Shown: piece after piece, positions 22,185 through 53,585 of the stretch | Layout of the letters: the number at the start of each line of letters is the position of its first letter | Position numbering within the stretch: position 1 is the stretch's first letter | Source of the DNA: Xiphias gladius | Lineage: Eukaryota > Chordata > Actinopteri > Istiophoriformes > Xiphiidae | NCBI RefSeq assembly: GCF_016859285.1 | Contig: NC_053413.1 | Span: forward strand, 19,577,501 to 19,641,500 | Direction: 5' to 3' | DNA length: 64,000 bases | Translations under genes and position numbers: made by a program | The notes under the pieces: generated by a model | What the model was told of the DNA's origin: nothing | What the model saw: the letters and a program-made list of their open reading frames with translations, nothing else | Databases searched by the model: none

Positions 22185-23855
22185 ATGGAGCACAGATGCT
22201 TGCTTGCAGCAAGTGTGTGTGTGTGTGTGTGTGTGTGTGTGTGTGTGTGTGTGTGTGTGTGTGTGTGTGTGTGTGTGTGTGTGTGTGTGTGTGTGTGTGT
22301 GTGTGTGTGTGTGTGTGTGTGTGAATTTGTGTGTGTGTGTGTGTGTGAATTTGTGCGTGTTTAGTGACTTTTACCCCCTCTCTCCTCCTGACTTCATGAT
22401 TTGCACAAACCTTTGCTCAGGCCTTTCAACTGCATTCTGTCACTGTCTGATCATTATCATTTTTAGCTTTATTGGCCAGATGCTTGCCAAGCTATGACCT
22501 AACATCTGTGATAGAAGTCAGAGCCCACTCCCTCTATAAGACAGAGATGGAGTAAAGGAATGGTTATTTGATGGACAGGAAAGTAGTAACCTTTTCTTTT
22601 AGTTATGTGTTTAATTGCACATTTAAGTCAATGTTACAGTTATGGTTTTCCAAGGTCTTCAACCCAAACAGTTGGTTTGTAGTCGAACCCTTCAGAAATC
22701 ATTACAGAGCTACTCTACTACCCAGAGTTGTTTGACTGCTGATTATCAAAGTTAAAATTATTACTGTTGACCTTACATACTGAAATTGGAACATGGAGTA
22801 TCTAATTTTCCTGGTATTTTTGCCTCGCAGTTGAAAAGTCAGATGAGATCCAGTAAAGCTCGGCAATTACAACATAAACTGTAATTCACAGGGAGAACTG
22901 ACCTAATTTGCCTTTACTACAGAGAGCTTTTCCACCTGTATATGTTAATGTACATATTTCTGGTAAATTCATATGATACATTACAGTAATTGGTATATGT
23001 TTGATTTTACTTGACAGTGTCTTATAGAAACAAATAAAATCTAAATGAACACTTCTCCATAAACCATATTCCTACTTCATTTGGAATGTCAAAATGTATC
23101 CATATTAACATTTACCATCACATCAAAGTTTGTAAAAGAATATAAAGTTCTGGATCAGCTGGAACATGTCTATGACATTAGGTCCTCCTTGTAATCTGAA
23201 GCTCTGCTTTGCTAATGTAAAAGAAGTGAGGCATTCACTGGGAGCCATAAAGTTAAGAAGTGGAAATTTAATGCAGTTTACTGAGTACACCCTGGACTTT
23301 AAGCTGGTTTACCGATAAGGACTCAGCTCAATTGCTGTAAATGTTGCACTCCAATAATTCAGACAGAAACTGTTAATAAGAGGGTTAGCAAGGGTGGCAG
23401 TCATGTTTTAAGGATTTTGCCTTTTCTTTCAGATTTCTTGCTGTTTCATGTTTCACCAGACATGAAGCAGTTATTTGTTCTGTCAGGTAAGGGTCTTCAG
23501 AACAAAATATCATACACATTTCTGGATCACTTTTTATTTTTAAGGTAGTGGTTGTAAAAACCTGCATGTAACTGTGGATTTTATAGGCTGTGTTGTGGCA
23601 GCAACACCACAGCCTACAAAATCAGTGAAAACAGAAAGATTACCATGGTGTAAATTAACATTATGGACACATTTCTTCCCCAGGTTTTCTTCTTTTAATC
23701 TCTTCATAATAAAACTCTCTTTACAGTATTGTTGCTGGTTGTGTCCTCTTGTCCTGATGGGGAATTCAACTGCAAATCTGGAGAATGTCTTCCCGCTGGA
23801 CTCGTCTGTGACTTTAATGAGGACTGTAAAGATGGGTCCGACGAGGAGTTTTGTG
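22185..23855 (+). CDS. mamdc4: mamdc4 exons 1-2: signal peptide and LDLa1
   Basis: Exon 2 (23727-23855) starts with hydrophobic residues LLLVVSS in front of CPDGEFNC, so a leader must begin in an upstream exon ending in phase 1. Exon 1 at 22185-22212 fits: ATG, then MEHRCLLAA and one leftover A before GTGTGT. The join gives [17 protein letters not shown], a good signal peptide. LDLa1 is complete: six cysteines and the acidic calcium cage [16 protein letters not shown]. The exon 1 call rests on frame and composition only; transcript evidence is not available here. Confidence 0.7.

Positions 23856-53585: not shown

What the first reader, a model, noticed from the sequence alone, without database searches (positions are those of the whole stretch)
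22185..53585. Endotubin-like protein with 13 MAM domains, about twice the mammalian size
The exon-by-exon rebuild gives LDLa1, MAM1-8, LDLa2, MAM9, LDLa3, MAM10-13, helix and tail, about 2,394 residues with no frame break. Mammalian MAMDC4/endotubin, as I know it, has six MAMs in about 1,140 residues. Its first MAM corresponds to MAM8 here, yet its degenerate N-terminal LDLa-like segment corresponds to LDLa1. The difference is thus an internal block of seven MAMs, either gained in fish or lost in mammals.
Basis: partly seen in the sequence, partly recalled or inferred. Interest (0 to 1): 0.75.

Follow-up and report, generated by a model that had tools for sequence, protein, structure and literature searches.

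The report
Long fish endotubin, thirteen MAM domains
This fish gene encodes a gut-type endosomal membrane protein of the endotubin family with 13 MAM domains where the mammalian protein is thought to have six, and the extra part looks old and built around a repeated block rather than being a simple recent insertion.

Summary
One gene at 22185-53585 (+) was rebuilt: 51 exons, 2,402 residues, one stop, at the end. Pfam finds 13 MAM and 3 LDLa stretches. Shared exons and short introns (107 bp between MAM7 and MAM8) argue for one gene. Endotubin (MAMDC4) is the best family; MALRD1 is described as nine MAMs interspersed with nine LDLas, which this is not.

One internal block of seven MAMs is too simple. 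Within the fish protein, MAM1-4 matches MAM10-13 as a repeated block (6 of 3024 assignments score as high). Pairing human MAM4-6 with fish MAM11-13 fails AU tests (p 0.013, 0.0008, 0.036), though the milder SH test rejects it in one set of three. Fish MAM2, 4 and 8 are closer to a human MAM than to any fish MAM; MAM9 and 10 are not. A recent fish gain is unlikely. No other vertebrate sequence could be searched.

The parts
22185..53585 (+). whole coding span of the endotubin-like gene, 51 exons, 2,402 residues
22185..22212 (+). exon 1, start of signal peptide; donor is the first GT of a GT array
   Evidence: joins exon 23727 to give [17 protein letters not shown]; inferred, no RNA
23750..23854 (+). 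LDLa1 (exon 23727-23855)
   Evidence: Pfam PF00057
24541..28019 (+). MAM1 (intron between its third and fourth exon carries a transposase remnant)
28056..29727 (+). MAM2; groups with human MAM4 (recalled sequence)
29740..31630 (+). MAM3
31742..33707 (+). MAM4; groups with human MAM6 (recalled sequence)
33708..33776 (+). Ser/Thr-rich linker between MAM4 and MAM5, same exon as the end of MAM4 and the start of MAM5
33777..35944 (+). MAM5
36062..37761 (+). MAM6
37774..39533 (+). MAM7
39671..41116 (+). MAM8; counterpart of human MAM1 (recalled sequence)
41252..41356 (+). LDLa2
41906..43611 (+). MAM9
43612..43713 (+). Pro/Ser/Thr-rich linker (56% S/T/P) between MAM9 and LDLa3
43714..43942 (+). LDLa3
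44761..45934 (+). MAM10
46138..47781 (+). MAM11
49038..51198 (+). MAM12
51211..52532 (+). MAM13
53127..53204 (+). membrane helix ([26 protein letters not shown])
   Evidence: by inspection
53205..53585 (+). cytoplasmic tail and stop; two in-frame splice versions, same last 33 residues

Best explanation
This is a fish gene of the endotubin (MAMDC4) family: one type I membrane protein with a signal peptide, an ectodomain of 13 MAM and 3 LDLa modules (about 2,300 residues), one helix and a short tail. The doubling is not one clean seven-MAM insert. The protein carries two related copies of an LDLa-MAM-MAM-MAM-MAM block (LDLa1-MAM1-4 and LDLa3-MAM10-13), with MAM5-7 and the family's MAM8-LDLa2-MAM9-linker core between them, and the extra modules are probably old. 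Proposed action, inferred from mammals: the protein sits in apical endosomes of absorptive epithelium, where the tail sorts it and contacts scaffold proteins while the long ectodomain lines the vesicle lumen as an adhesive or cargo-spacing array; the fish form would simply reach further. The mammalian protein is cleaved into an N-terminal and a membrane-bound part; I suggest the cut falls in the Pro-rich linker before LDLa3. In fish that would give an N-terminal piece of about 1,560 residues and a membrane piece of about 800, close to the mammalian one in size. Shown here: the gene model, domain content and block similarity. Inferred: family function, cleavage site, location.
For: Gene model and domains. 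The recalled sequence was held against print: it is 1216 aa with D1197, F1201, T1207, each 21 above the published rat D1176, F1180, T1186 (PMC11125477, passages), and its last 15 residues match the published rat Mamdc4 peptide NADQVTLPESITSNP at 12 of 15 (PMC7790586, passages). I had seen both passages before typing it, so this check is not blind. Block similarity from the fish sequence alone: MAM1-4 against MAM10-13 sums to 288 bits, the next of six windows 224; 6 of 3024 assignments reach it and 1 of 24 orders within MAM10-13, itself included; an LDLa precedes both blocks. Age: fish MAM2, MAM4 and MAM8 are closer to human MAM4 (1.35-1.42 changes per site), MAM6 (2.13-2.29) and MAM1 (1.21-1.28) than to their nearest fish MAM (1.93-2.16, 2.97-3.08, 2.02-2.05); the nearest fish MAM of each of MAM1-7 lies at 1.8-3.1. 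MAM1-7 as one clade: AU p 0.02. Mammalian role: PMC11125477, PMC5112496, PMC12746077 (passages). Fish gut: an 'apical endosomal glycoprotein' is reported in a marine teleost's intestinal mucus proteome (PMC5745981, passage).
Against: The human sequence is from memory, typed after I had read the fish sequence, so bias toward it cannot be ruled out; only the C-terminus and total length were held against print. SH tests are milder than AU: for colinear MAM4-6 p-SH is 0.22, 0.018 and 0.059, and for MAM1-7 as one clade 0.085. Single pairings human MAM4-fish MAM11 and MAM6-fish MAM13 are not rejected (AU 0.135, 0.146); in the reduced set they get 0.086 and 0.012. Fish MAM9 and MAM10 are further from human MAM2 (3.35-3.91) and MAM3 (2.97-4.18) than from other fish MAMs (2.02-2.47), against the age argument, though those human rows have long branches. 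11 of 16 inner branches of the MAM tree are open and its bootstrap had not settled. In the fish-only tree the four-pair block is merely not rejected (p 0.21) and is not the best tree. Exon patterns of the two blocks do not match throughout. The fish C-terminus matches the rat peptide at only 5 of 15, and the targeting residues are not plainly conserved: Y stands where F1180 would be and the threonine spacing differs. The neighbour gene is a mannose-receptor-like lectin; from memory, human MRC1 lies near MALRD1, which leans the other way.
Confidence: 0.65

Rival explanations
1. One reading: fish MAM8-13 are colinear orthologues of mammalian MAM1-6 and the only difference is a block of seven MAMs between LDLa1 and MAM8. 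The grouping of human MAM4 and MAM6 with fish MAM2 and MAM4 would then be due to fast or homogenised evolution of fish MAM11-13.
For: The full-length alignment is colinear over human 66-1202 and fish 1201-2365. The block score of human MAM3-6 is about equal for fish MAM1-4 (281) and MAM10-13 (289). MAM11-13 are the most alike MAMs of the array (106-119 bits, next 89). A model with human MAM4-6 each tied to both fish copies is not rejected (AU 0.21; 0.13). SH tests reject the strict pairing of MAM4-6 in one of three sets only.
Against: Strict colinear pairing of MAM4-6 is rejected by AU in three data sets (p 0.013, 0.0008, 0.036), and of all six MAMs in two (0.006, 0.004). Human MAM6 with fish MAM13 alone is rejected in the reduced set (p 0.012). 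MAM1-7 as one clade gets AU 0.02.
Confidence: 0.24
2. The gene is a MALRD1 (Diet1) relative that has lost most LDLa modules.
For: Both are long MAM/LDLa proteins. The neighbour on the minus strand is a mannose-receptor-like lectin (Ricin_B, CysR_MRC2_N, C-type lectin), and I recall that MRC1 and MALRD1 share human chromosome 10.
Against: MALRD1 is described as nine MAMs interspersed with nine LDLas (PMC8804323, passage); here 13 MAMs and 3 LDLas, in the order of endotubin. The 44.5% match of MAM8 to recalled human MAMDC4. No MALRD1 sequence was compared.
Confidence: 0.06
3. Two neighbouring genes, or an assembly join, read as one.
For: A Ser/Thr-rich linker follows MAM4, like the stalk before the helix in the recalled human protein. 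In a coral a long MAM/LDLa gene was first modelled as two (PMC4890752, passage).
Against: MAM4's end and MAM5's start share one exon; the MAM7|MAM8 intron is 107 bp with matching phase; no in-frame stop before the end across 51 exons; the window has no N.
Confidence: 0.05

Closest known systems
MAMDC4 / endotubin / apical endosomal glycoprotein (human Q6UXC1, rat Q63191)
   Same: Type I membrane protein; MAM-LDLa-MAM-Pro-rich linker-LDLa-four MAMs-helix-short tail; first MAM with its LDLa is the best matching piece (human sequence and order recalled).
   Different: 13 MAMs instead of six (six is recalled, and seen in the recalled sequence); about twice the length; N-terminal LDLa complete with six cysteines; MAM11-13 do not pair one to one with mammalian MAM4-6 in AU tests; tail residues shifted, C-terminus 5 of 15 to the rat peptide.
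MALRD1 / Diet1
   Same: Long MAM/LDLa protein of similar size (236 kDa, PMC8804323).
   Different: Nine MAMs interspersed with nine LDLas (PMC8804323, passage); here three LDLas only. Sequence not compared.
Coral and sea anemone MAM and LDL-receptor domain-containing proteins (PMC4890752)
   Same: Long MAM/LDLa membrane proteins; the paper itself names Endotubin and Diet1 as vertebrate proteins with such arrays (passage).
   Different: Also carry fibronectin, EGF and trefoil domains; sequence not compared here.

Membership tests
MAMDC4/endotubin | Type I membrane protein with signal peptide, one helix, short tail | tested here: met
   Signal peptide and helix by inspection of the spliced model; no predictor run; exon 1 inferred
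MAMDC4/endotubin | Order MAM-LDLa-MAM-linker-LDLa-four MAMs-helix at the membrane side | tested here: met
   the mammalian order is recalled
MAMDC4/endotubin | Closest sequence is MAMDC4 | tested here: inconclusive
MAMDC4/endotubin | Six MAM domains | tested here: not met
   13 MAM stretches; six is recalled and may define only the mammalian form, so I file it as a variant, not a plain member
MAMDC4/endotubin | Tail residues F1180 and T1186 (rat) for apical endosomal targeting | tested here: inconclusive
   Tail aligns loosely (FNKMYN with DNILFN recalled) but Y replaces F and threonine spacing differs; residues from PMC11125477
MAMDC4/endotubin | Expression and location in apical endosomes of enterocytes | not testable with these tools
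   no expression data; only a proteome report for a marine teleost
MALRD1/Diet1 | Nine MAMs interspersed with nine LDLas | tested here: not met
   13 MAMs, 3 LDLas; definition from PMC8804323
MALRD1/Diet1 | Sequence kinship in a domain tree | not tested
   no MALRD1 sequence available

The most novel reading that the evidence does not exclude
The common ancestor of fish and mammals had a long, two-block endotubin; the mammalian six-MAM protein is a shortened and rearranged remnant, and the fish gene keeps much of the ancestral receptor, including the true counterparts of mammalian MAM4-6 at its N-terminal end.
Probability: 0.3. Interest if true: 0.6.

Novelty: new variant of a known kind. Interest (0 to 1): 0.45.

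Why it matters
[quoted passage not shown] its main text holds neither 'mamdc4' nor 'endotubin'). If the fish protein is twice as long and of old design, mammalian constructs test a cut-down form, and domain numbers cannot be mapped one to one between the two. It also gives a testable case of how MAM arrays gain, lose and reorder blocks. Fish gene models labelled MAMDC4 may be split or cut short; I did not check any.

Tried and rejected
Searching the window's own genome for further MAM genes was tried 14 times with the same request; the tool was unreachable each time, so no second fish MAM gene was examined. A viral-contig search with MAM8-LDLa2 found no relative (4 pattern matches, none confirmed). 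A PDB search with MAM8 gave 12 distinct sequences at E up to 0.01, other MAM proteins, best enteropeptidase at 3.4e-17. A first automatic gene model gave 23 exons, several wrong. The second was changed after reading splice scores: exon 1 added, the MAM1 junction with a GC donor replaced, two acceptors moved (in MAM5 and MAM9), and the tail rebuilt; one search held an error at the helix exon end (53220 for 53221) that broke the tail frame, corrected. In one search a file name that I had overwritten gave wrong positions for five features and a wrong sequon count; one search repeats them (19 sequons). Constraint trees used a fast search, which can favour rejection; one search used the full search. 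Human MAM5 has no clear fish partner (AU 0.49, 0.46, 0.54 with MAM12, MAM3, MAM13). Papers opened, passages only, and not used: PMC6305624, PMC9936046, PMC7709124, PMC4545420 (no MAMDC4), PMC13163006 (names a tilapia MAMDC4 on LG7, no domain count) and PMC8810878. Searches that showed no title on the domain number of fish endotubin: MAMDC4 (67 papers, 30 listed), endotubin (14, all listed), MALRD1 or MAM domains (188, 25 listed), apical endosomal glycoprotein (5, all listed), MAM domain/zebrafish/lysosome-rich enterocytes (107, 20 listed), a mixed architecture search (168, 15 listed) and MAMDC4/MAM domains/LDLa (14, 10 listed); unlisted papers were not seen.

Full report
What is there. Stop-to-stop frames were searched with two MAM pieces; hits at E up to 1 included the first halves of all 13 MAMs, the weakest (MAM6) at 0.35. 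A splice-site model that kept reading phase joined exon cores which I picked by eye from the frames, and I changed it at five places after reading local sequence and splice scores. The final model has 51 exons from 22185 to 53585, 7,209 nt and 2,402 residues with one stop, at the end.

Pfam-A confirms 13 MAM and 3 LDLa stretches. One gene is the natural reading: four pairs of neighbouring MAMs share an exon, the exon that ends MAM4 contains a Ser/Thr-rich linker and the start of MAM5, and the introns at MAM3|4, 5|6, 7|8 and MAM8|LDLa2 are 99-111 bp. The soft ends are exon 1, chosen because it completes a signal peptide, and the helix-to-tail junction, where only weak donors exist. Two in-frame versions (53221 to 53326-53401 to 53484, or 53211 to 53458) share the last 33 residues; a third splice would end after NRKRTSRQL.

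Which family. MALRD1 is described as nine MAMs interspersed with nine LDLas (PMC8804323, passage), which does not fit. It is 1216 residues, and its D1197, F1201 and T1207 each lie 21 above the rat residues D1176, F1180 and T1186 studied by mutation (PMC11125477, passages). Its last 15 residues agree at 12 of 15 with the rat peptide printed in PMC7790586 (passages). I had seen these passages and the fish sequence before typing, so the check is not blind, and it bears on the C-terminus and overall length only. The recalled protein aligns over 66-1202 to fish 1201-2365 at 30.9% over 1190. Fish MAM8 against human MAM1 is the best pair, 44.5%, and fish LDLa2 scores best with human LDLa2 (103 against 75 and 44 for the other fish LDLas). 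A Pro/Ser/Thr-rich linker precedes LDLa3 in both. So the C-terminal part has endotubin architecture.

What the extra part is. Two tests disagree with a simple internal block of seven. First, without any outside sequence, MAM1-4 compared with the six later windows of four gives 288 bits for MAM10-13 and 224 for the next best; 6 of 3024 assignments of later MAMs reach 288, and 1 of 24 orders within MAM10-13, itself included. An LDLa precedes both blocks. Second, in a tree of 19 MAMs (13 fish, 6 recalled human), human MAM4 groups with fish MAM2 (94/86), MAM6 with MAM4 (96/93) and MAM1 with MAM8 (82/85); 11 of 16 inner branches are open and the bootstrap had not settled. With an outside MAM added, bootstraps for the three pairs are 73, 84, 100 in a reduced set of 13 rows and 84, 92, 95 with 20 rows. 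Pairing human MAM4-6 with fish MAM11-13 is rejected by AU with 19 rows (p 0.013), 13 rows (0.0008) and 20 rows (0.036); pairing them with fish MAM2-4 is kept (0.51, 0.52, 0.26).

Against this: the SH test gives 0.22, 0.018 and 0.059 for the same colinear pairing; the single pairings MAM4-MAM11 and MAM6-MAM13 are not rejected (0.135, 0.146; in the reduced set 0.086, 0.012); human MAM5 has no clear partner; summed block scores of human MAM3-6 are about equal for the two fish blocks (281 and 289); and a model tying each of human MAM4-6 to both fish copies is not rejected (0.21, 0.13). In the fish-only tree the four-pair block is not rejected (0.21) but not best. The safest statement is that human LDLa3-MAM3-6 is related to both fish blocks, and that the fish C-terminal triplet MAM11-13, whose members are the most alike of the array (106-119 bits), has drifted, been homogenised or been re-duplicated.

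Age. Fish MAM2, MAM4 and MAM8 are each closer to their human partner (1.35-1.42, 2.13-2.29, 1.21-1.28 changes per site) than to any other fish MAM (1.93-2.16, 2.97-3.08, 2.02-2.05). MAM9 and MAM10 are not: 3.35-3.91 and 2.97-4.18 to human MAM2 and MAM3, against 2.02-2.47 to fish MAMs; the human rows there have long branches. For each of MAM1-7 the nearest other fish MAM is 1.8-3.1 away (all). MAM1-7 as a single clade gets AU p 0.02, SH 0.085. Unless rates differ strongly, at least MAM2 and MAM4 existed at the fish-tetrapod split, so loss or rearrangement toward mammals is favoured over a recent fish gain. Long MAM/LDLa membrane proteins in corals and sea anemones (PMC4890752, passage) fit an old long form. 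One genome and one recalled human sequence cannot settle it.

How it likely works. [quoted passage not shown] A 50 kDa N-terminal part would end near the Pro-rich linker of the recalled human protein; this is my inference. The same cut in fish (43612-43713) would leave all extra MAMs in the N-terminal, lumenal piece and a membrane piece of ordinary size. The fish tail ends [25 protein letters not shown], which aligns loosely with the mammalian end (5 of 15 to the rat peptide) and does not keep F1180 or the T1186 spacing. Function in fish is inferred, not shown.

Verdict.

Noticed in passing
868-18320, minus strand: A mannose-receptor-like gene, head to head with the endotubin gene: Ricin-B/CysR_MRC2_N exon at 17922-18320 and C-type lectin exons at 14114-14449 and 14927-15430. 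Further frames toward the window's low end look lectin-like by eye; the one scanned (1147-1428) had no Pfam match.
   Followed up: partly
22213-22347: A GT array starts exactly at the proposed donor of exon 1, so repeat length could affect which donor is used.
   Followed up: no
25375-26172, minus strand: Transposase remnant (Pfam DDE_3, E 4.5e-11), Tc1-like by look, in the 2.7 kb intron inside MAM1.
   Followed up: partly
54518-56424, minus strand: Frames that look like a LINE-type reverse transcriptase; Pfam gave no match for the two frames scanned, so the label is from recall.
   Followed up: no
53326-53401: Possible tail exon with good acceptor and donor encoding NFVFDLFD, a second hydrophobic-acidic stretch; it needs a weak donor at 53221 to be in frame, otherwise it adds an early stop.
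   Followed up: partly
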